NCBI RefSeq assembly: GCF_000006445.2 | Contig: NC_006046.2 | Coordinates: forward strand, 868,001-932,000 | Direction: 5' to 3' | Length of the DNA: 64,000 nucleotides | Source of the DNA: Debaryomyces hansenii CBS767 | Lineage: Eukaryota; Ascomycota; Pichiomycetes; Serinales; Debaryomycetaceae | Part shown: one piece after another, positions 5,404 through 49,384 of the stretch | How positions within the stretch are numbered: the stretch's first letter is position 1 | Layout: each line of letters starts with the position of its first letter | Notes under the pieces: generated by a model | The model's input: only the letters and a program-made list of their open reading frames with translations | What the model was told of the DNA's origin: nothing | Databases searched by the model: none | Program-made: the position numbers and the translations under genes

Positions 5404-8400
5404 TTAATTTCTTAATGAATGAAACCGCCCTATTTTACCCGATGATGGACTTCTTAGTATATTAGGAGGGGTGGACGATATCCTTGGTCTAGGAAGAGCA
5501 TGACGATCACCAATATCGTAGAGACCATCCTTATTATTTCCCGATTTATCACCCTCTTCAAAATGATCATTATCAAAGGTCAAATCGTCAACATTTCTGT
5601 TAATTAAATAACGCAAAGCATTATACCATATATTATGGCGTTGTCTTGTAGCACATGTTATTTTAATTGATCTATTCTGGGAATGAACAATAATACTTTT
5701 ATGGTATAAACCTGTTGGCAAAGGATTATTGTCTTCAACGCTTTGAACACCAATGATCGCAGCTGCTCGAGTTTTAAGTTCAGCCGGGTTGGTAAGTACA
5801 GGATTCGATGACGACCAGTAAAGTGTTAACGAATATGGATGAACCCAGAAATATCTTTCATGACGACTCTCTGAAATTGAGCTCAATGGGCCTAAACGGC
5901 GATAGTACTTGAATAAATATTCTCCAATAACAACTTGTGTAATTGCCGGTATCATAGATTTATCAGTTAATGAAACGTTTGTTGCCATTGAGAGAACACC
6001 AGTAGTGTGAAGTGAATCACTAATACTGTTGACATTGGAATAATGTGACAAATTGGATCTGATTGAATTGGATGCGGTTAAGGTGTTCATTTGCTTATGG
6101 TACGAACCGGTTGACCCAAATGATGGAGGACTCTTTATGTTTCCTCCTGGTGGTGGTTGCGAAAATTTTGAGACTAAATTCATTTCAGGACTTCCACTGT
6201 TTGATTTTGGAACAGCCTGTAAAGTATCCGTATGAGTATATCCACGTTTCTCTGCATACTTCTTGAAAGTTTCATCGGAAACTTTTTCAATGCACAAAGA
6301 ATCGTTTCTTGTTAATTTGTTATAATAAGTCGTCGGTATCACTGTCACCTTGTTCACATCAGCAGTCCTTGAAACTGTAGTTGCAACAAAGGCAGATTTC
6401 GGTACACATAAAAGTCCTAATTTTCTACCAACTTCAGTCAACTTATCCTTATCTTCTACTACTCTCGATAACTTTTCATACTTGGCAAAATCGTCTTCTG
6501 TAATAACTGATAACCCTAATTCGGAAGCCACTGAAGTAAGCTCAGCCACCGACAAATTTATCGGAGGAGGATTTTTACCGATATTGGCAAGCGATTTCAA
6601 TTCATGATAATCTTTCTTTTCTAATAAAACCATATCAATTTCTGACAGCTTGTTAATTAATGCTTCTTTACTAAAATCTGACTCTGAATTTCTACCCAAA
6701 TTAAATATTTGGAAATCTTTTTCTGCAATGCTTTGCTTCATCTTCAATATATCAACCTCTGGTACTAATGTGAGAGATAACTCTTTCGCCTGGTCTCGCA
6801 AGCGTTGTTCGCACAATCTTGGGTTTGAAAGCTCTTCATATTCTTGTTTGGAGATCACAACCATATCAATATTTGCTGCCTTTTTAGTCAACTCATCTGC
6901 ATCAAAGTCTCCAGTCAGATCGCTTCTACTGATACCGCTATACAAGTCCGGAACTGGTGCAGCCTTCTCTATAGAGATCTCCCCAGAGCTTACTCTATAA
7001 CCACGATTTTCTGCCATTTCAATAATCTCTGCGTCTGACACGTCTCTTAGTTTATCATCAATAGCCTTTTCGATAGATTCAAATTCCTCAATTGGCATGA
7101 TATGTAGACCACACTCTCGTGCTTTTGCTGAAAGAAATTCAGGAGTAGGCTTGTTCATTTGTGATTTCAAATTTTCATATTCAGCCTTGTCAATGGCTAC
7201 TAAACCAAGAGATTTAACTTTTTCATCGAAAGGTTGATTGGCTACAGACAGCAATTGCTCGTATTCTTCAATTGATAAGACTGTTAACCCATTCAACAAT
7301 GCATTGTTTTTGATGCTTTCAATTGACGGCTTGTTAGCTCTGACTAATAAGTCATTATATTCTTCCGGACAAATTATTTTCTTATCTGATTCTTTTGCAT
7401 GCTCTTCCAATGATCTATTCGCAACAGATTTCAAGCTATCATACTTCTCTGCTTCAACGATTCTATGTCTTTGAGAATACGCCTTCTCCATTAAGTATTC
7501 TAATGATGGATTTGCTATATTTCCTTGCAATTTATCAAATTCAGAGATTGATATGATTCGTTGCTTTCTACTTGCAGCTTTAAGTTCCAATGGCTCCTCC
7601 ATTGACTTACGTAACTCATCTAATTCCTTCGAATCTATAATAGAGAATCCACGAAGGTTTGCCTTTTCCAAGATATAGTCTAATGAAGGTGATTCAAGTT
7701 TTTGATATTCTTCCAATGTTAGCAACTTTAGATTTGCAGCCTCGGCCTTCAGAGTTAGTGGTTCAATTGCACTTTTCTCTAAATTCTTAAATTCGTCAAT
7801 CGGAATAATCTTCATTTGTACTTTAGCAGCCTTATCTTCTATAGACTCAGAAGCAACTTTTTGTAACTCCTCCAAATCTTTTGCTCCAATCAACTTCAAT
7901 GACAATTTATCGGCCCTGTTCTTAATTGACTCATTAGCTTTGCTCTCTAAGTCTATAAATTCTGGGCGGCTTATTACAATATGTTCTCGCTTTTCAGCCT
8001 TTTCTTTAATATGATCCAATGAAGGGCTATCTATTACACTTTTGAGTTCAGCTAATTCTCCAGTCAAAATTAGGGAATGATCATATTTTAGAGATTTCTC
8101 TTTAAGATGATCTAAACCTGGATCGTTAGCCTTATCACGTAAATCTTCGTACATAGATGTCTCTATGATCGTTTTGTTTAAAACATTGTTTTTATATTCG
8201 GCAGCTTCATCATTCAACTTCTCATATTCACTCTTAGGCACAACTAAGTGGTCGTGGATCTTCAGCTTCTCGGAAAGACTCTCCAACGTAGGGGTTTCGA
8301 CCTGCTTCTTCAAAGTCTCATATTCACTCTTAGGCACAACTAAGTGGTCGTGGATCTTCAGCTTCTCGGAAAGACTCTCCAACGTAGGGGTTTCGACCTG

Positions 8401-11400
8401 CTTCTTCAAAGTCTCATATTCACTCTTAGGCACAACTAAGTGGTCGTGGATCTTCAGCTTCTCGGAAAGACTCTCCAACGTAGGGGTTTCGACCTGCTTC
8501 TTCAAAGTCTCATATTCACTCTTAGGCACAACTAAGTGGTCGTGGATCTTCAGCTTCTCGGAAAGACTCTCCAACGTAGGGGTTTCGACCTGCTTCTTCA
8601 AAGTCTCATATTCACTCTTAGGCACAACTAAGTGGTCGTGGATCTTCAGCTTCTCGGAAAGACTCTCCAACGTAGGGGTTTCGACCTGCTTCTTCAAAGT
8701 CTCATATTCACTCTTAGGCACAACTAAGTGGTCGTGGATCTTCAGCTTCTCGGAAAGACTCTCCAACGTAGGGTTGTCAATCTGTTCCATTAGTTTGTTG
8801 TAATCAACAGATGAAATCGGCTTTATGTTTTGTCTTTTAGCTTTAACTTCGAATGGTTCATTGAAAGACGAAATTAAGTTGTCATATTTCTCTTGGGGCA
8901 CCGCCACATAATCATACCTATCCAACTTTTCAGTAATATGTTCTAACGAAGGTGACTCCACTTTCTCGATCACTTTCTGTAAGTTTTCTTTGAAAATACC
9001 GGTTTGACCCTTTTCAAGCGCCTTCGCGTCCATCTTCATATTCATACCAAAATGACACCATAATGCATCTAAGTCTGACATTGGTAAAGCAAGCATACTT
9101 GATTCTTTCGCAATTTCATGAACTGTCTTTTTAGAATGTTCTTTGAGCTTGCTGTATTCATCGTTGGTTATCATCACCATATCTAATACTTCTGCCTTTC
9201 CTGACAAGTATGAAGTAGATGGTGATGCGATTTCTTCTGTCAATTTATTGAATTCTTCGACAGAAAGTACCACCATACCAAGCTCTTCGGCCTTTTGATG
9301 AATAGGCTTCTCTGCATCATAATATAATTTACTCAAATCTGACGAAGGAATTACGGTGTAGCCATAATGTTCAGCTTTTCTAGTAATATGTTCAATACTT
9401 GGGTTATCGATACTCTTTTCCATCAAACCATAGTCTTCAATACTAATAACTTTCATATTTTCCTCATTTGCTCTGTCAATCAAAGATTTATTCGCATTCT
9501 TCAATAATGAAGAATGTTCATTTTTAGGTAAAACAATATGATCAAGTAACATGGCTTTTTCGGAAACATGTTCAAGAGTAGGACTTGTGACTTGTAAATT
9601 CAAAGCATCGTATTGACTGCTTTCCATCACAGTTAATCCTATTAATGACGCAACTAAATGTAAATGAGATTCATCCGGATGATGAGCTAATCTAACTAGG
9701 TCATCATGTTCGCTTTGATTCAATAAAACAAATCCGATTGATTTCGTTTTGTCTTGTAAATAATCTTTTGATGGGTTTAAAACTTTTTCATTTAATTCAT
9801 CAAATTCACCTTGAGGTATCATAGTATACCCGTTGTTTGATGCCTTCTCTGTTAAGAATGAAATCGATGGCGAGGAAATAGTTTCTTGGAAATTGTCATA
9901 TGTGGACTTTTCGATACCAATAAGTCCGATTTTGGAAACATACTCAAGTATTTTTTCACGACTTGGGTTGTTTATGTCTTTGTATTCATCCTTATTCAAA
10001 ATAACTAGCTCCTTACTTTCACCTTTTTGTCTTATGAAATCAATACTTGGGTTATCAATCTTTTCTCTGATATCTTTATAATCATACTCTGGAATTAAGC
10101 GATGTTCATTCTTGTTTGAATGCTGTATAAGAAATTCTAAAGAAGGCGAATTAATACTTCTTTCCATCTCAATAAACTGTTGTTTAGGAAGTATTACATG
10201 GTTTTGCTTCTCAGCGTGCTCTGTTAACAACTTTATAGTTGGATTTTCAAGCAGACTTTGCATTTCAATCAAATCTTCTTTCTTTATTAATTCGTAGCCA
10301 GAATGAGAGGCCGACTTGACAATGGTGTCAAAATCTAAATCACTTGAGTTATTTCGAGGCTCACATATTTTAGAAAGTAGCTGATCATGTTGATTCTTCG
10401 TTAAAGCTACCATTCCGACTAAAGAAGCCTTTTCAATAAGATGGTTTTTATTTGGTTTATTCGCTTTCAATGAAATCTCGTTATACTTTTCGTCTGATAT
10501 AGCTACTAATCCATATGATCGAGCATTTTTCAATATGAAATCTTTAGGATTACTTATAGTTTCATTATATTCGTCATGTTTTTGTTTAGATAACAACACA
10601 AAACCATGACTACTGGCATGTTTTTCAATCATTTTCTTGTTTGGATTAAGTAATTCTCCATATTTCTGTTCTGGTATCGAAAGGAAACCTATCTTCTTGG
10701 CTAGCGTATTTATACGTTCCTCAGATGGATTATTCGCTAATTTTTCCAACTTGTTAAAGTCTTCATTAGCAATAACAACATGCCCCTTCTTTGTTGCAAG
10801 CTTCTCAATATGAGAAAGAGAAGGGTCGTTCGCCAACTCCATCAAAGTATTATGCTTATCATGTTTGATAGCAATCATTCCAGCCTTTGAAGCCGCTTCT
10901 TTGATGAATTCAGAATTTGGGTTATTGCAAAGTTGCAATAATTTATCATGCTGGTCCTTCTTCATGGTGACAAGTCCTAATTTTCTTGCACATAAATCAA
11001 TATGCTTACTGTTAGGATTATTGGCTAAATTTACGAGGTCATTGTGTTGAGATTTACTCAAGGTTGTCAAATTCAATTTGGATGCTAATTCTGAAACTTG
11101 CTCTTTTGTTGGTTTATTTGCCAATGCCTCTAATTTCTTATGATCTTCCTTCTTGAGAATTGTACATCCCATAGCTTCAGCTCTCAATTGAATACATTCA
11201 AGAGATGGCTTATCTGCCCTGTTCTGTAAGTCTTTATATTCGGATTCATCTAAAACTCTCAAATTATTAGCAGACGCCTTTTGTTTTATACTGTCAACCA
11301 GTGGATTATTTGAAGATTTCACTAATATCTCATAATCAGTATTCTGCATAATAGTTAGTCCCAACTCCTTTGTTTTTTCAGTTAGATCATCTAAAGTTGG

Positions 11401-14400
11401 GTGGTACGCCATTTTTTGTAATTTTTCATGATCTTTTATAGACATTATGGTCATATCAAGATCCCTAGACTTTAATTTTACATGTTCAATGGAAGGTTTA
11501 TGAGCCAATTCATCCAACTTGTTATGTTCTTCAATTGTTAAAGTAGTTAATCCATTTTCGGCAGCTTTCTGCTTCAAATAATCAAGAGATGGCTTTTTCA
11601 GCTGTTCTACCATATCGTTGTATTCTTTAGCTTCCAAAATAATCAAACCTATTTCTTTCGCCTTAACTTCAAGTTGCAATTTGGTAGGTCTATGGAAAAA
11701 GTCTGATAATTCTTTATGATCCAGAACGGTGAGACATACTAAACCGACAGCATTAGATTTAGAAATAATATGATCAGCAGTAGGCTCATTAGCCAAGCTC
11801 TTCAAAGTTGTGAATTCTTTGCTGTCCACTGCAACCAAACCCTTCTTACCAGCGCTATTTTCGATTTCTTTAATTGTTGGGCTTTCGATTTTTTGACGTA
11901 GCTTTTTATGTTCCGGTTTATGTAAAACTACATAGTTTAACAAATCTGCCTTTTCTTTAATATACTTAATAGATGGATTACTTGCAATGTTCTCTAACTC
12001 CTTAAATTTATTTTCTTTAGTTACCACATACCCAATTGATTCTGCTTTAGAAATAAGATGTTGAATAGGTGGTTCCTCTGCTAACTTCTTTAAATCAGAA
12101 AGCTCTTCTTTCTTGATTGCTGAATAACCTAAGTTGTCTGCTTTAGAAATAAGATGTTGAATAGGTGGTTCCTCTGCTAACGTCTTTAAATCAGAAAGCT
12201 CTTCTTTCTTGATTGCTGAATAACCTAAGTTGTCTGCTTTAGAAATAAGATGTTGAATAGGTGGTTCCTCTGCTAACGTCTTTAAATCAGAAAGCTCTTC
12301 TTTCTTGATTGCTGAATAATCTAAGTTGTCTGCTTTAGAAATAAGATGTTGAATAGGTGGTTCCTCTGCTAACGTCTTTAAATCAGAAAGCTCTTCTTTC
12401 TTGATTGCTGAATAACCTAAGTTGTCTGCTTTAGAAATAAGATGTTGAATAGGTGGTTCCTCTGCTAACTTCTTTAAATCAGAAAGCTCTTCTTTCTTGA
12501 TTGCTGAATAACCTAAGTTGTCTGCTTTAGAAATAAGATGTTGAATAGGTGGTTCCTCTGCTAACTTCTTCAACTCGTTGTAGTCGCTCACTTTTGTGGC
12601 CACATATCCAGAATCTTTAGCCTTTGAATTAATATGATTAATAGAAGGCTTATGTGCCAATAGATAAAGGTCATCAAATTCTTCATTCTGAATAGTTTTG
12701 TAACCTAGCAATTTCGCTTTTTCTGAGAGGTGGTCAATATGAGGCTCGTTGGCCAATAAATCTAGCTTCTTGTAATCATCGATAGGAATTAATTGATGAC
12801 CGTGGAGTACCGCTTTGCTCTTTATGTGATCAATTGGTGGATTGTGAGATAATTTGTCTAATTCTTCATGATCTTTCTTTGCTACAATTGTATGCTCTGA
12901 TGCGTCTGCGTGTGATTTAAGATGTTCTAAATCTGGCTCAAATGCTAACTTCAAAAGATTTTGATGCTCATTATGTTCCATTATGTCATAGCCTTGTTTT
13001 GAAGCTTGGGCTTCAAGAAATCCTAATGTAGGATTATTCGAAATTGACTCAAGTGTTTTATAGTGCTTTTCCTCTACAAGCACAAGATCTCTATCCTTAG
13101 CTTTCTGCTCCATATATTCTAAAGATGGAGCATTCTTCTCTTCTATCAACATGTTGTATTGCTCTTTTTCAACAAGAATATTACCAAATACTTCAGCTTT
13201 ATTTCTTATATGGGCTATAGAAGGCTCGTGAGCTGCTTTGAATAGATCAGTATATTCTTCTTTTGTTAAAGTAATCAATCCATGTTCTTCAACCTTTGAT
13301 TTAACGTGGCTCAAACTAGGACTGTTAGCCAATTTATCTAATGTCAGATATTCTGAATTTTTTATAACCCTATAGTCTTTTTCTATTACTCGTTTAATAT
13401 GATCTACCGGTGGAGAATTAATTAATTGTAGTGATCTATAATATTCGTCCTCAGCAATTAATTTGTAATTCAAATCGGCTGATTTTGAAGTTAAATGGTC
13501 AAATGTCGGATTATGAGCTAAAACGTTTAATTCAGCATAATCCTTGTCGGAACATAAGACAAATCCATATTCCTTGGCCATTGAAGTTAAAGTTTCAATC
13601 GAAGGACTGATAAGTTTAGCATGTTCTTCATTGCTCAAAACATTCAATTTATTTTCTTTCGCCTTTGACTTGATGTGATCAACGGACGGATTTTGCGCCA
13701 AGTTTACCAAATCGTCATAAAACTTAGAAGGCGATACTATCAATCCTAATTCGTTTGCTTTATTAGTAATATACGCTTTAGTTGGTTTTTCCAATTCAAC
13801 TGTTAATTTTTGATAGTTCTCGTATGCATCATTCAGTAGAGCATGTAAGTTATAATCCTTACATTTTGAAATCAAATAATTCTGCGAGGGTTTATTATAA
13901 TTAACGACCTTCTTATTCAATCGCTGAAGATCTTCTTTTTCAATTATTTCGTATCCAGACTCGGCTGCCTTTGAAGAAAGGTATTCCATATCTGGCTTAT
14001 TATATGAATCATTAGTGTGCACCAAGTTTTCATGTTCATCAACAGGCAAGGTAACCAATCCTCTTGATTCCAATCTCTTTTTCATCTCATCTTCGTTCAA
14101 AAGTCTAGAATGTTCCTCCTTACTCATTATCATAAACCCTCTATCTTGAGCAATTTTAATGAAATCGTCCTTTGAAACAGATTGAGCTTCGTTCTTCATA
14201 AGTCCCTCATATTTATCATACAGTAACAAAATCAAATTATTCTCATTAGCGTAATCGTCTAATTGCTTCCTTGTAAAGCTAGTGTTCATCAATTCTTTGG
14301 ACAAGCTTTCTTTTTGTCCTTGAGATGGTGACACGTCTTCATCAGAATCAGAAGAATCAGTAAGATATGGAGCATCGTTATCTCTTGATTTTATATCAGT

Positions 14401-15702
14401 ATTAATATTCTTGAAAGACTCATCAGCAGAGTCAATAGTAGTGTTACCATGGTCCGTTGTATTAGGATTTAAGACCCGAGTAGGTGACCTACCTGCTGTT
14501 ATATTATCGTCAAGGAAATCTTCCCACTTACCGCCGTCATTAGGATATTGACTATTGTTAGACTCATCGTCTAATATAATTAACTTGGAGTTCCTCTTTG
14601 AAGGAGACAATGCGATAGAGTTACGTTTAGACTCATTATACTCATTCTTAGTGCCTCTCTTTTTATTAACTCTCAGTTTTATCGGGGTTTGTATCTCATT
14701 GTCATCCTTATCGAATCTATATCTTAGTAATGAAGCCCTCAATTTGGCTATGGTTCTATTCGAATGGTTTAATGTTGCTCTCAATGTTTCTAATTCCAAT
14801 GCAGGATTACTTGGGTCAGATACAGGTGGTATTTCAGGTTGTGATTCCTTTAATAAGCTATTGATATCTAAAGAATCCATCTCTGAATCTAAACTTTCAT
14901 TATGGATTACCGCATCTTTAAGTTCTGAACGATCCATTGTCTCCATCTGGCTTGTATTTGACTTATCTACTCCAGATAATTTTATATGCAATTGATCATT
15001 TTCATCATTCAATTCGTCAATTCTGTCTGATAACTCCAAGATTTCTTTCTTGTATGTTGTTTTCAACTTATCGTAATCTTTGGATAGAGAGGCATTTTTC
15101 AATTGTAAATCGTCATTCTGATTTTGAATGTGGCTCAATTTTGCTAATTGTTCCTGGTTCAGTTTCAATAACTTTTCTTTGGTCCCACTTAAACTTGTGA
15201 TCTTGTCGTTTAAACTCAATAAATTCGATTCCAATTCCCAATTTTTGTCCTTCAAGTCACTTTCGTTGTTGATCTGAAAATCCCGGGAATTCTGCAATGA
15301 TGAGTTTTGATCCTTGTAAGCTTGAATTTCTAACATCGTAGTCTTCAATTTAGCCTTATATTTCTGGTTTTCCGCCGTCAACCTACGGCATTCACCAAGT
15401 AAATTTTCACTAAGTCCCACCACGAAATTCATGTCATTACCCTTTGTTTCAGGTCCTAACGCCGGTGTCGGATGTGGTACCGACGAACCTAACGATCCTG
15501 AAGGATTCAAACTCTTATTAGAAGCCTGATGAGTGAGATTCGACTGGTCACTCAATAATGGTAGATTTGGGGGTTGCTTTTCATTAGTCTTATTCAGTTC
15601 GGTTTTATTTTGGCTAGATTTGCTAAATAACCTTTTCTGAATATCTGAAAACTGTCCCCGAAGGTCCTCCTTTGAAGAAGGCGGTTTTTGTTTCAGAGAC
15701 AT
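5404..15702 (-). CDS. NUM1: Num1-like cortical anchor protein with PH domain (3432 aa)
   Basis: Giant protein of 3432 residues. The N-terminus (to about 100) is Ser/Pro-rich; about 90-330 is predicted coiled coil, where S. cerevisiae Num1 has its membrane- and mitochondrion-binding domain. An acidic linker follows. From about 520 to 2870 the protein is a long series of degenerate repeats of about 32 residues with the pattern NPSxxHIxxKAxxLGxxxL, then a short EEYxxL segment. The C-terminus carries a PH domain at about 3245-3370 (GEYLFKYYRRLG to IWYNALRYLINR), as in Num1, where it binds PI(4,5)P2 at the cell cortex. Num1 captures dynein for nuclear migration and tethers mitochondria and ER to the plasma membrane. 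S. cerevisiae Num1 is 2748 residues; the extra length here lies in the repeats. Two repeat blocks are nearly identical at DNA level and listed separately. Start: ATG 15702-15700; the third codon is CTG (Ser in this code). Confidence 0.9.
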   Translation of the reverse strand: MSLKQKPPSSKEDLRGQFSDIQKRLFSKSSQNKTELNKTNEKQPPNLPLLSDQSNLTHQASNKSLNPSGSLGSSVPHPTPALGPETKGNDMNFVVGLSENLLGECRRLTAENQKYKAKLKTTMLEIQAYKDQNSSLQNSRDFQINNESDLKDKNWELESNLLSLNDKITSLSGTKEKLLKLNQEQLAKLSHIQNQNDDLQLKNASLSKDYDKLKTTYKKEILELSDRIDELNDENDQLHIKLSGVDKSNTSQMETMDRSELKDAVIHNESLDSEMDSLDINSLLKESQPEIPPVSDPSNPALELETLRATLNHSNRTIAKLRASLLRYRFDKDDNEIQTPIKLRVNKKRGTKNEYNESKRNSIALSPSKRNSKLIILDDESNNSQYPNDGGKWEDFLDDNITAGRSPTRVLNPNTTDHGNTTIDSADESFKNINTDIKSRDNDAPYLTDSSDSDEDVSPSQGQKESLSKELMNTSFTRKQLDDYANENNLILLLYDKYEGLMKNEAQSVSKDDFIKIAQDRGFMIMSKEEHSRLLNEDEMKKRLESRGLVTLPVDEHENLVHTNDSYNKPDMEYLSSKAAESGYEIIEKEDLQRLNKKVVNYNKPSQNYLISKCKDYNLHALLNDAYENYQKLTVELEKPTKAYITNKANELGLIVSPSKFYDDLVNLAQNPSVDHIKSKAKENKLNVLSNEEHAKLISPSIETLTSMAKEYGFVLCSDKDYAELNVLAHNPTFDHLTSKSADLNYKLIAEDEYYRSLQLINSPPVDHIKRVIEKDYRVIKNSEYLTLDKLANSPSLSHVKSKVEEHGLITLTKEEYTDLFKAAHEPSIAHIRNKAEVFGNILVEKEQYNMLIEEKNAPSLEYMEQKAKDRDLVLVEEKHYKTLESISNNPTLGFLEAQASKQGYDIMEHNEHQNLLKLAFEPDLEHLKSHADASEHTIVAKKDHEELDKLSHNPPIDHIKSKAVLHGHQLIPIDDYKKLDLLANEPHIDHLSEKAKLLGYKTIQNEEFDDLYLLAHKPSINHINSKAKDSGYVATKVSDYNELKKLAEEPPIQHLISKADNLGYSAIKKEELSDLKKLAEEPPIQHLISKADNLGYSAIKKEELSDLKTLAEEPPIQHLISKADNLDYSAIKKEELSDLKTLAEEPPIQHLISKADNLGYSAIKKEELSDLKTLAEEPPIQHLISKADNLGYSAIKKEELSDLKKLAEEPPIQHLISKAESIGYVVTKENKFKELENIASNPSIKYIKEKADLLNYVVLHKPEHKKLRQKIESPTIKEIENSAGKKGLVAVDSKEFTTLKSLANEPTADHIISKSNAVGLVCLTVLDHKELSDFFHRPTKLQLEVKAKEIGLIILEAKEYNDMVEQLKKPSLDYLKQKAAENGLTTLTIEEHNKLDELAHKPSIEHVKLKSRDLDMTIMSIKDHEKLQKMAYHPTLDDLTEKTKELGLTIMQNTDYEILVKSSNNPLVDSIKQKASANNLRVLDESEYKDLQNRADKPSLECIQLRAEAMGCTILKKEDHKKLEALANKPTKEQVSELASKLNLTTLSKSQHNDLVNLANNPNSKHIDLCARKLGLVTMKKDQHDKLLQLCNNPNSEFIKEAASKAGMIAIKHDKHNTLMELANDPSLSHIEKLATKKGHVVIANEDFNKLEKLANNPSEERINTLAKKIGFLSIPEQKYGELLNPNKKMIEKHASSHGFVLLSKQKHDEYNETISNPKDFILKNARSYGLVAISDEKYNEISLKANKPNKNHLIEKASLVGMVALTKNQHDQLLSKICEPRNNSSDLDFDTIVKSASHSGYELIKKEDLIEMQSLLENPTIKLLTEHAEKQNHVILPKQQFIEMERSINSPSLEFLIQHSNKNEHRLIPEYDYKDIREKIDNPSIDFIRQKGESKELVILNKDEYKDINNPSREKILEYVSKIGLIGIEKSTYDNFQETISSPSISFLTEKASNNGYTMIPQGEFDELNEKVLNPSKDYLQDKTKSIGFVLLNQSEHDDLVRLAHHPDESHLHLVASLIGLTVMESSQYDALNLQVTSPTLEHVSEKAMLLDHIVLPKNEHSSLLKNANKSLIDRANEENMKVISIEDYGLMEKSIDNPSIEHITRKAEHYGYTVIPSSDLSKLYYDAEKPIHQKAEELGMVVLSVEEFNKLTEEIASPSTSYLSGKAEVLDMVMITNDEYSKLKEHSKKTVHEIAKESSMLALPMSDLDALWCHFGMNMKMDAKALEKGQTGIFKENLQKVIEKVESPSLEHITEKLDRYDYVAVPQEKYDNLISSFNEPFEVKAKRQNIKPISSVDYNKLMEQIDNPTLESLSEKLKIHDHLVVPKSEYETLKKQVETPTLESLSEKLKIHDHLVVPKSEYETLKKQVETPTLESLSEKLKIHDHLVVPKSEYETLKKQVETPTLESLSEKLKIHDHLVVPKSEYETLKKQVETPTLESLSEKLKIHDHLVVPKSEYETLKKQVETPTLESLSEKLKIHDHLVVPKSEYEKLNDEAAEYKNNVLNKTIIETSMYEDLRDKANDPGLDHLKEKSLKYDHSLILTGELAELKSVIDSPSLDHIKEKAEKREHIVISRPEFIDLESKANESIKNRADKLSLKLIGAKDLEELQKVASESIEDKAAKVQMKIIPIDEFKNLEKSAIEPLTLKAEAANLKLLTLEEYQKLESPSLDYILEKANLRGFSIIDSKELDELRKSMEEPLELKAASRKQRIISISEFDKLQGNIANPSLEYLMEKAYSQRHRIVEAEKYDSLKSVANRSLEEHAKESDKKIICPEEYNDLLVRANKPSIESIKNNALLNGLTVLSIEEYEQLLSVANQPFDEKVKSLGLVAIDKAEYENLKSQMNKPTPEFLSAKARECGLHIMPIEEFESIEKAIDDKLRDVSDAEIIEMAENRGYRVSSGEISIEKAAPVPDLYSGISRSDLTGDFDADELTKKAANIDMVVISKQEYEELSNPRLCEQRLRDQAKELSLTLVPEVDILKMKQSIAEKDFQIFNLGRNSESDFSKEALINKLSEIDMVLLEKKDYHELKSLANIGKNPPPINLSVAELTSVASELGLSVITEDDFAKYEKLSRVVEDKDKLTEVGRKLGLLCVPKSAFVATTVSRTADVNKVTVIPTTYYNKLTRNDSLCIEKVSDETFKKYAEKRGYTHTDTLQAVPKSNSGSPEMNLVSKFSQPPPGGNIKSPPSFGSTGSYHKQMNTLTASNSIRSNLSHYSNVNSISDSLHTTGVLSMATNVSLTDKSMIPAITQVVIGEYLFKYYRRLGPLSSISESRHERYFWVHPYSLTLYWSSSNPVLTNPAELKTRAAAIIGVQSVEDNNPLPTGLYHKSIIVHSQNRSIKITCATRQRHNIWYNALRYLINRNVDDLTFDNDHFEEGDKSGNNKDGLYDIGDRHALPRPRISSTPPNILRSPSSGKIGRFHSLRN
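8221..8796 (-). repeat. NUM1 internal tandem array A: six 96-bp units
   Basis: The phrase ctcatattcactcttaggc recurs at 8221, 8317, 8413, 8509, 8605 and 8701, an exact 96-bp period. Over these six units the sequence looks identical base for base, until the last unit diverges at about 8775. Each unit encodes 32 residues with the core TLESLSEKLKIHDHLVVPKS, at about protein residues 2300-2495. Identity at silent sites means recent duplication or gene conversion. Confidence 0.97.
12041..12568 (-). repeat. NUM1 internal tandem array B: about 5.5 units of 96 bp
   Basis: The phrase tctgctttagaaataagatg recurs at 12041, 12137, 12233, 12329, 12425 and 12521. Units differ by only a few bases (aacttcttt or aacgtcttt; one gaataatc for gaataacc). 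Each encodes 32 residues with the core LAEEPPIQHLISKADNLGYS, at about residues 1045-1220. The sequence is unrelated in detail to array A but has the same 32-residue length and register. Confidence 0.96.
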
Positions 15703-24139: not shown

Positions 24140-25416
24140 ATGGAAGGTCCAATTCAGTTAAAAAGAAGACACAGTTGGTTCTCTAAGAGTCACCATGATA
24201 ATGGAATAGAAATATTATCCTGTAATAATGAAGATATGCAGATTACAGATTTAGAAGAAGATATCAATCCAATCGATCAGAGCAGCCCTATACCAGACAC
24301 AGGTATTGACACAAGCTGGATCGATACAAAAAATGTTCATAATGATATAGAAGAATTGAAAAATTATACTAATCAGGCATCTTTGAATAAATTAAAGAGA
24401 AAACTGAGTATTTTAGGACTATTGAAACCAGGGAGCGCCCATGACGAAGAACAGGAGGAGAGTAGTTCTGAAGAACAAATCAGCATGGATAATGAGATGC
24501 CACAGTTGAAGTTTATTGCAAGATGCAAATCACAAGGATCCTTCGGTAAATCAGTCACTCCACTCAAGATTCGTGACAATATCAACCACTTCTTGAAACT
24601 ATGTCCTGCTCAAGAAAACCAAGAAATTTCTAACCAGGATAACTGTGGAGTATTTGAAAAGGTTAAGTCCATTTCTAAGACCCTGAGCAATAACAAATAT
24701 ATTAATTTGAATGGAGTTCCTTGTTCACGATTAGGACTAATAGACCACAACCAATGTGCTGCGTTTATGTTTCAACTAAATAATATAAGGAAGAACGTTG
24801 TTGACTATGCGTTTTATTTTGATTGGGTTGTATGGTTGGAAAGGATAAGCGGGGACAACAGTAAAGAGATGTATATGGATAGGATCATTGAAACTAAATC
24901 TGATTGTAAAGTTTCTCTAAAAGTGTGCAAAAGAATCATGGAAGAAGCCCCTCGTAAAATCCATATTTCCAAAGTTGGAACCACACCAAGAAGACAATCG
25001 AAAAATTTAATAGACAGCGGAACAGTTGAATTTTGTGTTCCATTTGAATATGAATACCCCATGTTTAAGGAACTATCCATTACCATCATGGATAATTCGT
25101 TGTACAACCCCCAGGATATCCAGTGTATGTATTTTATTTCGAAATTTCTCAAAATGGTGAACTAACTAAATTAGTGCCGGTATGTGCCGTTTCGTACAAA
25201 CGTATGCCAGCGTATTCGATTGTTTCCCTTTGGCTTCACCCTCCGAAACAAAAAGAATGTGACGACGAGATATTCCCACCCGATAGTCTCTTACGACTCA
25301 CAGAACGCATTAGAGAAATAATATCCGGATTTCTACAGGATATAGTTGACTCTGCAGTATTCATTGAAAATAAAACTCTTTCCACTAGAAATATCTACGA
25401 CAAGAAACTACAATAA
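24140..25416 (+). CDS. Orphan protein, two exons (408 aa)
   Basis: Proposed exons 24140-25124 and 25175-25416, joined by a 50-nt intron; total coding length 1227 nt, an exact multiple of three. Without splicing the frame stops at 25165, after 341 residues. The N-terminal 150 residues are acidic and Ser-rich. The folded-looking part (about 185-400) contains GVPCSRLGLIDHNQCAAF, DYAFYFDWVVWLERISG and, in exon 2, SYKRMPAYSIVSLWLHPP. I do not recognise the family; no signal peptide or membrane segment is evident. Exon 2 uses more CGC, CGA, CTC and CCC codons than exon 1, which leaves some doubt about the 3' part. Confidence 0.65.
25125..25174 (+). other. Short intron (50 nt) in the orphan gene
   Basis: 5' splice site GTATGT (25125-25130), branch point AACTAAC (25160-25166) and 3' TTAG (25171-25174). 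Splicing gives codon T+TG (Leu) followed by PVCAVSYKRM and an open frame of 80 more codons. All three signals fall at the exact place where the frame would otherwise end. Confidence 0.7.
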
Positions 25417-25510: not shown

Positions 25511-25621
25511 TCAAACGATCACACAGAAGCGTGGAACTCCACCACTCCTCGTTCTCCACGAATAGTTATCTTTTGTTTCGTCTTGAGTTTGCTCTGTAGA
25601 ATTAGTATTTTGAGCTGCCAT
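25511..25621 (-). CDS. MFA1: a-factor mating pheromone precursor (36 aa, CaaX end)
   Basis: A 36-codon ATG ORF, the same length as S. cerevisiae Mfa1. The N-terminal part is Gln/Asn/Thr/Glu-rich (MAAQNTNSTEQTQDET). It is followed by KDN-Y, the residues around the Axl1/Ste23 cleavage site of Mfa1 (KKDN before YIIKG). It ends in C-V-I-V-stop, a CaaX box for farnesylation, -aaX removal and carboxymethylation; S. cerevisiae ends CVIA. Predicted mature pheromone: YSWRTRSGGVPRFC, 14 residues with farnesyl-cysteine methyl ester, unusually rich in arginine. In the family it is exported by the ABC transporter Ste6 and sensed by Ste3. A TATA-like ATATATAAG lies about 70 bp upstream on the minus strand, and an ATTGTC motif (25715-25720) resembles an HMG a2 site. 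The gene lies in the 804-bp gap before URA4. What is inferred is the function; the ORF and its end motif are directly visible. Confidence 0.82.
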   Translation of the reverse strand: MAAQNTNSTEQTQDETKDNYSWRTRSGGVPRFCVIV

Positions 25622-26220
25622 ATTTGTAGTCTGAATCAATATCAATTATTAATGAATGTATTGAAAAAGTAGAGATTATGTTGTTCACTTATATATGTCC
25701 ATTTTTATATGTTGATTGTCATCTCAACCTGAAGCTCATCTGTGCGATTCCGTTTAGACTTGTTGCAATGGTTTTTCAGGTGTTTTACTTGTCACTCGCT
25801 CTAACTCCTTTCAAGGGTCTACAATATGTTAGTATATTATATAGTAGTAGTTAAGTAGTATTTAGCGTTTATTATTTTGTTGTCCCATATCCAGCGTATT
25901 GTCAAGTCTCTTTTAGGGATTAAGCCTTACATTTTTGGTGAGACAACGAGATATATTTCTAATTTGGGATAAATGAAGCCTATTAAACTTAAAATCAATT
26001 CATCACTAATTGTTTACGATAAAATAATCGTACATCACATAGTTTAACTACTGTTAGTCAACTAGCTTTGATGACATCCAGGCATAGGTTTGGCCCTATA
26101 TGGCTGCAAACTATGATTACATAAGCTATACCCGGGGGAATTTTTTTTTCATAGTGAAAAATTTATTGATAACGAAAAGATGATTCTTACTTAGTGATTT
26201 ACGATTAAAAGCAGATAAAG
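25622..26220. promoter_or_regulatory. Promoter region of MFA1 (minus) and URA4 (plus)
   Basis: 599 bp. Near the MFA1 side: a TATATATA-type box around 25689-25697, CCATTTTTAT at 25699 and ATTGTC at 25715. TTTCTAATTTGGGA near 25957-25970 is an imperfect Mcm1-type element (8 of 10 core positions). Near URA4 there is a poly-T run at 26142-26150 and a CCCGGGGG stretch. Assignments to factors are tentative. Confidence 0.35.
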
Positions 26221-27303
26221 ATGGCCAAGGAAATCGAATTAGGTATCACCGCTGACATGCACGTCCACTTACGTGATGGTAAAATGATGGAGTTAATTAC
26301 ACCTACTGTTAGAGAGGGGGGTATATCGATAGCATACGTTATGCCGAACTTGGTTCCCCCAATTACAACTATCGATAGGGTAGTTGAATATAAGCAAAAC
26401 TTAGAAAAGTTGTCACCAAAGACCACATTTTTGATGTCATTTTATTTATCGAAAGAGTTAAGTCCTGAATTGATTCTGGATGCCGCCAAAATAGGGGCCA
26501 TTCATGGTGTCAAGTGCTACCCAGCTGGTGTTACTACCAATTCTGCTGCTGGTGTCGATCCCAACGACTTCACACCTTTCTACCCTATTTTCAAAGCATT
26601 GGAAGAGAATAATCTTGTTTTGAATTTGCATGGCGAAAAGCCACCATCGAAGGATGGCGAAGAGGATATCCATGTCTTGAACGCCGAACCAAAGTTCTTA
26701 CCAGCCTTAGAAAAATTGCATAATGACTTCCCAAACTTGAAGATCATCTTGGAACATTGTACAACAAAGGATGCAATCGACATGATTGAAAAAATCAATG
26801 CTGGTCACAAAGACGGTGATGATGTCAAGGTCGCTGCTACCATCACTGCTCATCATTTATCGCTTACAATTGATAACTGGGCTGGAAATCCTATCAACTT
26901 TTGTAAGCCAGTTGCTAAGTTGCCAGCTGACAAGCGTGCCTTAGTACAGGCTGCGACGTCTGCTAAACCATACTTCTTCTTTGGATCTGACTCTGCTCCT
27001 CATCCTTTATCCGCCAAGGCAAAACATACGGGCGTATGTGCCGGTGTCTACACCCAATCGCATGCTATTGCTTACTTGGCAGAGGTCTTCGAAAGTCAGA
27101 ATAGATTAGCCAACTTGAAGAAGTTTGTGAATGACAACGGTAAAGGCTTCTACGGAATTTGTGACCAAGATGTTAAATGCAAAGATAAATGCTACTTGGT
27201 ACAGAATGCCAACAATGTCCCCGAAATGTTTGGTAACAAGGATATTACTGTTGTTCCTTTCAAAGCTGGTGAAGAATTAAAATGGACAGTTGAATGGAGA
27301 TGA
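26221..27303 (+). CDS. URA4: Dihydroorotase (pyrimidine biosynthesis)
   Basis: A 360-residue amidohydrolase that cyclises N-carbamoyl-aspartate to dihydroorotate, the third step of UMP synthesis, in the cytosol. Zinc ligands and catalytic residues are visible: DMHVHLRDG (His16, His18), GVKCYPAGVTTNS (the carboxylated Lys), LNLHGEKP (His), LEHCT (His) and FGSDSAPHP (the catalytic Asp). Length and sequence match S. cerevisiae Ura4 (364) closely over the whole span. Codon 86 is CTG; S. cerevisiae has His there, so a polar serine fits better than leucine. The start ATG is preceded by AAAG, and no other in-frame ATG lies upstream. Confidence 0.97.
   Translation: MAKEIELGITADMHVHLRDGKMMELITPTVREGGISIAYVMPNLVPPITTIDRVVEYKQNLEKLSPKTTFLMSFYLSKELSPELILDAAKIGAIHGVKCYPAGVTTNSAAGVDPNDFTPFYPIFKALEENNLVLNLHGEKPPSKDGEEDIHVLNAEPKFLPALEKLHNDFPNLKIILEHCTTKDAIDMIEKINAGHKDGDDVKVAATITAHHLSLTIDNWAGNPINFCKPVAKLPADKRALVQAATSAKPYFFFGSDSAPHPLSAKAKHTGVCAGVYTQSHAIAYLAEVFESQNRLANLKKFVNDNGKGFYGICDQDVKCKDKCYLVQNANNVPEMFGNKDITVVPFKAGEELKWTVEWR

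Positions 27304-48448: not shown

Positions 48449-49384
<936 letters not shown>

What the first reader, a model, noticed from the sequence alone, without database searches (positions are those of the whole stretch)
25511..25621. Probable a-factor mating pheromone gene hidden in the gap before URA4
A 36-codon minus-strand ORF has three marks of an a-factor precursor: the exact length of S. cerevisiae Mfa1, the KDN-Y junction used for N-terminal processing, and a C-V-I-V-stop CaaX box. The predicted mature peptide YSWRTRSGGVPRFC shares almost nothing else with Mfa1 (YIIKGVFWDPAC), and has three arginines, unusual for a hydrophobic lipopeptide pheromone. ORFs this short are skipped by gene finders, so the gene is likely absent from standard annotations. 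A chance 36-codon frame ending in a CaaX motif and carrying KDNY is improbable.
Basis: partly seen in the sequence, partly recalled or inferred. Interest (0 to 1): 0.88.

Follow-up and report, generated by a model that had tools for sequence, protein, structure and literature searches.

The report
Likely a-factor mating pheromone gene
A tiny 36-codon gene next to URA4 in a Debaryomyces-type yeast probably encodes its farnesylated a-factor mating pheromone, a new sequence for a well-known kind of signal, in a yeast group whose self-mating is poorly understood.

Summary
The ORF is real: window 25621..25511 (minus) reads MAAQNTNSTEQTQDETKDNYSWRTRSGGVPRFCVIV-stop. In simulated sequence, ORFs of 25-60 aa with a CaaX end and KDN 8-24 residues before the Cys occur about 0.4 times per 12.18 Mb (12 in 352 Mb), or 0.002 per 64 kb; KDN plus a CVI-x end never arose. 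The ORF lies alone in an 800-bp gap with a TATATAAG at -74. The genome holds an a-factor-exporter orthologue (HST6/STE6), STE2, STE3, prenyltransferase, STE24-type and ICMT-family genes, and a mating locus with MATalpha1 and a homeodomain gene. CVIV has precedent in a-pheromones of Australozyma, though Metschnikowia uses CVIA (PMC12359140). Beyond the two motifs it shows no likeness to Mfa1/Mfa2. Conservation in sister species, the decisive test, could not be run: no other Debaryomyces DNA was obtained. Verdict: probable a-factor precursor gene, a new member of a known kind, perhaps already among the predictions of Srikant et al. 2023 (not held).

The parts
25511..25621 (-). 36-codon ORF, probable a-factor precursor (ATG at 25621, TGA at 25513-25511)
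   Evidence: the only match in the genome at E<=10, one candidate scored
25562..25573 (-). K-D-N-Y codons, putative N-terminal processing junction (cut N19|Y20 inferred by analogy to Mfa1, recalled)
25523..25564 (-). predicted mature 14-mer YSWRTRSGGVPRFC
   Evidence: translation; processing inferred
25514..25525 (-). CVIV CaaX box, putative farnesylation site
   Evidence: CVIV/CTIV predominate in Australozyma a-pheromones (PMC12359140)
25688..25695 (-). TATATAAG, TATA-box-like, -74 to -67 from the ATG, no ATG between it and the ORF
   Evidence: of 264 short ORFs in the window (this one among them) 18 have a TATAWAWR box at -130 to -31 and 7 have it with no ATG between; 6 of 28 larger genes have such a box. 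STE2 has one at -64
25807..25825 (-). ATTGT-AGAC-CCTTGAAAGG, possible HMG (a2) plus Mcm1-like composite site, about 190 bp upstream of the ATG
   Evidence: only match of ATTGTN{3,6}CCNNNNNNGG in the window, but 1.22 expected and 72 of 100 shuffles have at least one; pattern chosen after seeing it; weak
24140..25416 (+). convergent left neighbour, function unknown, relatives in Debaryomyces; 50-nt intron at 25125-25174 inferred
   Evidence: no Pfam family over its cut-off
26221..27303 (+). divergent right neighbour, dihydroorotase (URA4)
   Evidence: 6l0a, E 7.8e-169

Best explanation
The ORF is an a-factor precursor gene (MFA) of this Debaryomyces-type yeast. The 36-residue precursor is made from its own TATA promoter. 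By analogy with S. cerevisiae (established knowledge), the Cys of CVIV is farnesylated by a RAM1/RAM2-type enzyme, VIV is trimmed by STE24/RCE1-type proteases, the Cys is carboxyl-methylated by an ICMT (STE14 type), the pro-part is cut off after KDN, and the lipidated 14-mer YSWRTRSGGVPRFC is exported by HST6/STE6 to act on STE3 of mating partners. Shown: the ORF, its motifs, its rarity, and genes for the exporter, the receptors and the families of modifying enzymes that were searched. Inferred: transcription, every processing step, the cut position, and function.
For: ORF and motifs; 12 in 352 Mb for KDN+CaaX and 0 in 352 Mb for KDN+CVI-x; free-standing position with a TATA box and no ATG in between; HST6/STE6 orthologue: its first 833 residues are 84% identical to a D. 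fabryi protein and 44% to a C. albicans protein labelled alpha-factor-transporting ATPase; STE2, STE3, three PF00432 prenyltransferase matches, one STE24-type (PF16491) match, two ICMT matches, MATalpha1 and a homeodomain gene at one locus; CVIV/CTIV in Australozyma a-pheromones (PMC12359140); weak promoter hint.
Against: No conservation shown: the protein search with the 44-aa open frame found nothing, though unannotated short genes would be missed. Apart from KDNY and CVI the precursor is no more like Mfa1/Mfa2 than shuffles that keep the motifs (617 and 578 of 2000 reach the score). The mature part has three Arg. Only one copy was found, while Metschnikowiaceae often have several (PMC12359140). 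In Metschnikowiaceae of an earlier study the box is CVIA (same paper). STE2 lacks the composite promoter site, and with one mismatch allowed 6 of 28 control promoters have one. The pathway genes are general in yeasts. No expression data.
Confidence: 0.87

Rival explanations
1. Chance ORF: an untranslated or non-functional short frame that happens to end in CVIV and to hold KDNY.
For: CaaX-ending short ORFs are common by chance, about 200-220 per genome; 0.3 per genome even with CVI-x and a loose K/R-N junction. No homologue found.
Against: KDN plus CaaX is expected 0.002 times in 64 kb; KDN plus CVI-x was not seen in 352 Mb. A TATA box with no ATG in between is met by 7 of 264 short ORFs.
Confidence: 0.08
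2. A real small prenylated peptide gene that is not the mating pheromone.
For: A CaaX box alone does not prove a pheromone (PMC10569646, passages seen); the basic mature part differs from Mfa1.
Against: KDN-Y stands 13 residues before the Cys, against 11 in Mfa1/Mfa2 (recalled sequences). HST6/STE6 and STE3 are present and need a ligand gene.
Confidence: 0.04
3. A secondary or decaying a-factor copy, the main gene lying elsewhere. This overlaps the best explanation where the copy still works, so the odds do not add to one.
For: Australozyma a-pheromone loci number one to four and A. monospora has two pseudogene copies (PMC12359140). This genome could not be scanned by motif.
Against: Frame and both motifs are intact; no second copy at E<=10, although a diverged copy would be missed.
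Confidence: 0.1

Closest known systems
S. cerevisiae MFA1/MFA2 a-factor precursors (sequences recalled)
   Same: Length 36 vs 36/38 aa, polar pro-part, KDN-Y junction, C-V-I-x stop
   Different: Mature part 14 vs 12 residues, no likeness beyond the motifs, three Arg, CVIV instead of CVIA
a-pheromones of Metschnikowiaceae (Australozyma, Metschnikowia)
   Same: Same order (Serinales); CVIV or CTIV predominate in Australozyma (PMC12359140, passages seen)
   Different: The same paper says CVIA is conserved in the species of Lee et al. 2018; the sequences are in a figure and could not be compared residue by residue
Candida albicans MFA1 (Dignard et al. 2007, not held; title seen in reference lists)
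   Same: Farnesylated a-factor of a CTG-clade yeast (recalled); exporter orthologue HST6 present here
   Different: Sequence not available here; no comparison made
Saccharomycopsis fibuligera MFA1/MFA2 (PMC5106798, passages seen)
   Different: Two tandem copies there; sequences not seen
Genome-wide a-factor predictions in Saccharomycotina (Srikant, Gaudet and Murray 2023; not held; content recalled)
   Same: Used short ORF, CaaX and an upstream processing motif plus conservation, on 332 genomes, with candidates in 241 (recalled)
   Different: Whether this gene is in its list could not be checked

Membership tests
Ascomycete a-factor pheromone precursor | Short ORF (<100 aa) ending in a CaaX box | tested here: met
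   36 aa, CVIV-stop
Ascomycete a-factor pheromone precursor | N-terminal processing motif (Asn before the mature peptide) upstream of the Cys | tested here: met
   KDN|Y at residues 17-20, Cys at 33, giving a 14-mer with the Cys; actual cleavage not shown
Ascomycete a-factor pheromone precursor | No secretion signal; exporter STE6/HST6 in the genome | tested here: met
   Pro-part MAAQNTNSTEQTQDETKDN is polar by its composition (no signal predictor was run); HST6 orthologue
Ascomycete a-factor pheromone precursor | Conserved mature peptide in close relatives | not testable with these tools
Ascomycete a-factor pheromone precursor | Control by a2/Mcm1 (CTG clade) as an a-specific gene | tested here: inconclusive
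   Composite site in this promoter, relaxed form in STE6 (2 places), none in STE2 or STE3, relaxed form in 6 of 28 controls
Ascomycete a-factor pheromone precursor | Farnesylation, methylation, secretion, activity on alpha cells | not testable with these tools
   Enzyme-family and receptor genes present; AXL1, RCE1 and RAM2 not searched; no biochemical data

The most novel reading that the evidence does not exclude
This is the a-factor gene of a primary-homothallic yeast whose haploid cells carry MATa-type and MATalpha1 genes at one locus, so that a single cell may make both this ligand and its receptor STE3. The pheromone would then work between mother and bud of one clone, with an unusually basic, Arg-rich peptide.
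Probability: 0.35. Interest if true: 0.6.

Novelty: new member of a known kind. Interest (0 to 1): 0.42.

Why it matters
Krassowski et al. 2019 (PMC6692504, passages seen) class D. [quoted passage not shown] The a-factor gene, with STE2, STE3 and HST6, gives the reporters needed to test that: single-cell expression of MFA versus alpha-specific genes would show whether hidden a and alpha states exist. It also adds a basic, Arg-rich peptide to the a-factor repertoire.

Tried and rejected
The 44-aa open frame found no candidate sharing three 5-residue words; weak evidence, since short genes are seldom predicted. The same database does hold Debaryomyces proteins (5 relatives of the left neighbour, among them 98% from a JGI contig and 80% D. 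fabryi).

One scan each of viral contigs and of bacterial/archaeal genome contigs for a Debaryomyces neighbour, hoping for stray yeast contigs, found none: 4 and 13 stretches matched a pattern, none a relative. Pfam and PDB searches with the ORF gave nothing at E<=10.

The composite HMG+Mcm1-like promoter site was kept only as a hint. With no mismatch, the wider search finds 2 such sites in the window: this one, and one at 48628 that falls inside an ORF listed. One strict site per window is what shuffles give. STE2 (600 bp) and STE3 (383 bp) lack it, and relaxed versions occur in 6 of 28 control promoters. MATa2 at the mating locus was not confirmed: the spliced candidate gave no HMG match in Pfam at E<=0.1.

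Likeness to Mfa1/Mfa2 beyond the motifs was rejected (617 and 578 of 2000 motif-keeping shuffles reach the score). Equal length to Mfa1 was rejected as evidence. Two papers on yeast prenyltransferase specificity do not name CVIV in their main texts (PMC10320760, PMC11304957; term search and passages; supplements not seen).

In-print check: no title or abstract start in the listings of searches names a D. hansenii a-factor gene. Listings were capped (20 of 13,056; 20 of 43; 20 of 25); one search listed 17 of 20. Srikant 2023, Dignard 2007, Butler 2009 (id recalled), Michaelis and Barrowman 2012 and Heistinger 2018 are not held, nor is anything under a DOI that I recalled for Lee et al. 2018. 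So absence from print is not claimed.

Full report
What is there. Window 25621..25511 on the minus strand is an ATG-to-TGA frame of 36 codons, MAAQNTNSTEQTQDETKDNYSWRTRSGGVPRFCVIV. The codon list has no CTG, so the CTG=Ser code of this yeast group does not alter it. The frame sits alone in the gap between a plus-strand gene that ends at 25416, if spliced as inferred, and the plus-strand dihydroorotase gene (URA4) that starts at 26221. It is convergent with the first and divergent from the second.

Whose genome. The window is part of a 12,181,948-base genome in 8 contigs. The left neighbour is 98% identical to a protein from a JGI contig and 80% to a D. fabryi protein. The mating locus (below) agrees, as far as it could be checked, with the neighbouring MATa1, MATa2 and MATalpha1 described for D. 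hansenii and five other Debaryomyces species (PMC6692504, passages seen).

Chance. In the real window 264 ORFs of 25-60 aa were counted; 2 end in CaaX and 1 of these, this one, has KDN. In order-3 Markov sequence trained on the window's intergenic part (180 Mb) and on the whole window (172 Mb), 3250 and 2824 ORFs end in CaaX; 6 and 6 also have KDN 8-24 residues before the Cys; 32 and 32 end in CVI with A, S, V, M, T, Q or C; 5 and 4 have that end plus a loose K/R-N junction. None has KDN plus that end, and none has KDNY plus CaaX. Per 12.18 Mb this is about 200-220, 0.41, 2.2, 0.3 and none. Multiplying the fraction with KDN (12 of 6074) by 2.2 gives about 0.004 per genome for KDN plus CVI-x, if the two are independent (inference). 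These definitions were written after the ORF was seen.

Comparison with Mfa1/Mfa2 (recalled sequences). The KDN|Y junction and the CVI are shared, the rest is not. Free shuffles of the ORF reach the observed score 3 and 1 times of 2000; shuffles that keep the two motifs reach it 617 and 578 times. The predicted mature peptide would be the 14-mer YSWRTRSGGVPRFC against 12-mers in S. cerevisiae. The case rests on the two motifs and their layout, not on homology.

CaaX box. PMC12359140 (passages seen) reports that CVIV or CTIV predominate in the a-pheromones of Australozyma (Metschnikowiaceae, same order), that CVIA is conserved in the Metschnikowiaceae of an earlier study, and that a-pheromone loci run from one to four per Australozyma species. 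A CVIV end and a single locus are therefore within precedent. One search scored one candidate only and would miss a diverged copy. PMC10569646 (passages seen) stresses that a CaaX box is not exclusive to a-factor and that further evidence is needed.

Promoter. A TATATAAG lies 74 bp before the ATG with no ATG in between. Of the 264 short ORFs in the window, 18 have a TATAWAWR box at -130 to -31 and 7 have it with no ATG in between; of 28 larger genes 6 have such a box. Further up, ATTGT-AGAC-CCTTGAAAGG (25807-25825) looks like an HMG site next to an Mcm1 site, the arrangement that I recall for a-specific genes of Candida; a switch from positive control by MATa2 to negative control by MATalpha2 at these genes is stated in PMC2253631 (passages seen). 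It is the only strict match in the window, but 1.22 are expected and 72 of 100 shuffles have at least one, and the pattern was chosen after seeing it. In the wider search (either orientation, gap up to 8) the window has 2 such sites without mismatch, the other at 48628 inside an ORF. With one mismatch allowed the STE6 promoter has 2 places and 6 of 28 control promoters have one; 600 bp of STE2 and 383 bp of STE3 have none. The one control promoter with a perfect site is that of URA4, which shares this DNA. I count this as a weak hint.

The pathway. The genome has STE2 (E 2.0e-83) and STE3 (E 9.7e-85). It has an orthologue of HST6/STE6: the first 833 residues, read from locus L017, are 99% identical to a 1246-aa protein of unnamed source, 84% to a D. 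fabryi protein and 44% to a C. albicans protein labelled alpha-factor-transporting ATPase (the label is a misnomer, since STE6 exports a-factor, established knowledge). It also has three matches to the prenyltransferase family PF00432, one to the STE24-type PF16491 and two to ICMT. AXL1, RCE1 and RAM2 were not searched. Such genes are general in yeasts: they show that the pathway can exist, not that this ORF is its substrate.

Mating locus. Contig C5 near 1,588,000 holds MATalpha1 and, about 1 kb away, a homeodomain gene (E 3.6e-8). Beside that is a two-exon frame that could be MATa2, but Pfam shows no HMG box in it. This fits the contiguous primary-homothallic class in which PMC6692504 places D. 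hansenii. Mother-bud conjugation has been described in D. hansenii (PMC11078162, passages seen). If both sets of genes are on in one cell, the pheromone would act within a clone; if each cell expresses one set, this gene would be an a-state marker. Either result would be informative.

What could not be done. The genome could not be scanned by motif. There are no expression data. The paper most likely to list this gene, Srikant et al. 2023, is not held.

Verdict. A probable a-factor precursor gene (0.87), a new member of a known kind, possibly already predicted elsewhere. Interest is moderate: the class of thing is well known, but the gene is a handle on primary homothallism.

Noticed in passing
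window 24140-25416: The left neighbour appears to have a 50-nt intron (GTATGT...ACTAAC...TAG, 25125-25174) whose removal gives a 408-aa frame. All 5 relatives listed (D. fabryi among them) end at, or within about a dozen residues after, the residues CMY that reading into GTATGT would give, so the recorded proteins are probably truncated; one comes from a short contig of 1699 bases.
   Followed up: partly
L029 (G000:C5:1582500-1592400), 5455-8896 minus strand: Mating locus with MATalpha1, a homeodomain gene and a two-exon candidate MATa2 whose HMG box Pfam does not recognise.
   Followed up: partly
L033/L034 (G000:C7:455484-456915): Two ICMT-family genes lie back to back on opposite strands, their matches 0.9 kb apart; S. 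cerevisiae has one, STE14 (recalled).
   Followed up: no
G000:C6, promoter of the HST6/STE6 gene (L017 2500-2758): The STE6 promoter holds the 9-mer CCTTTCAAG next to an ATTGT; the same 9-mer, on the other strand, is in the promoter of the a-factor candidate.
   Followed up: partly
window 5404-15702 (-): An uninterrupted 3432-codon ORF, not identified.
   Followed up: no
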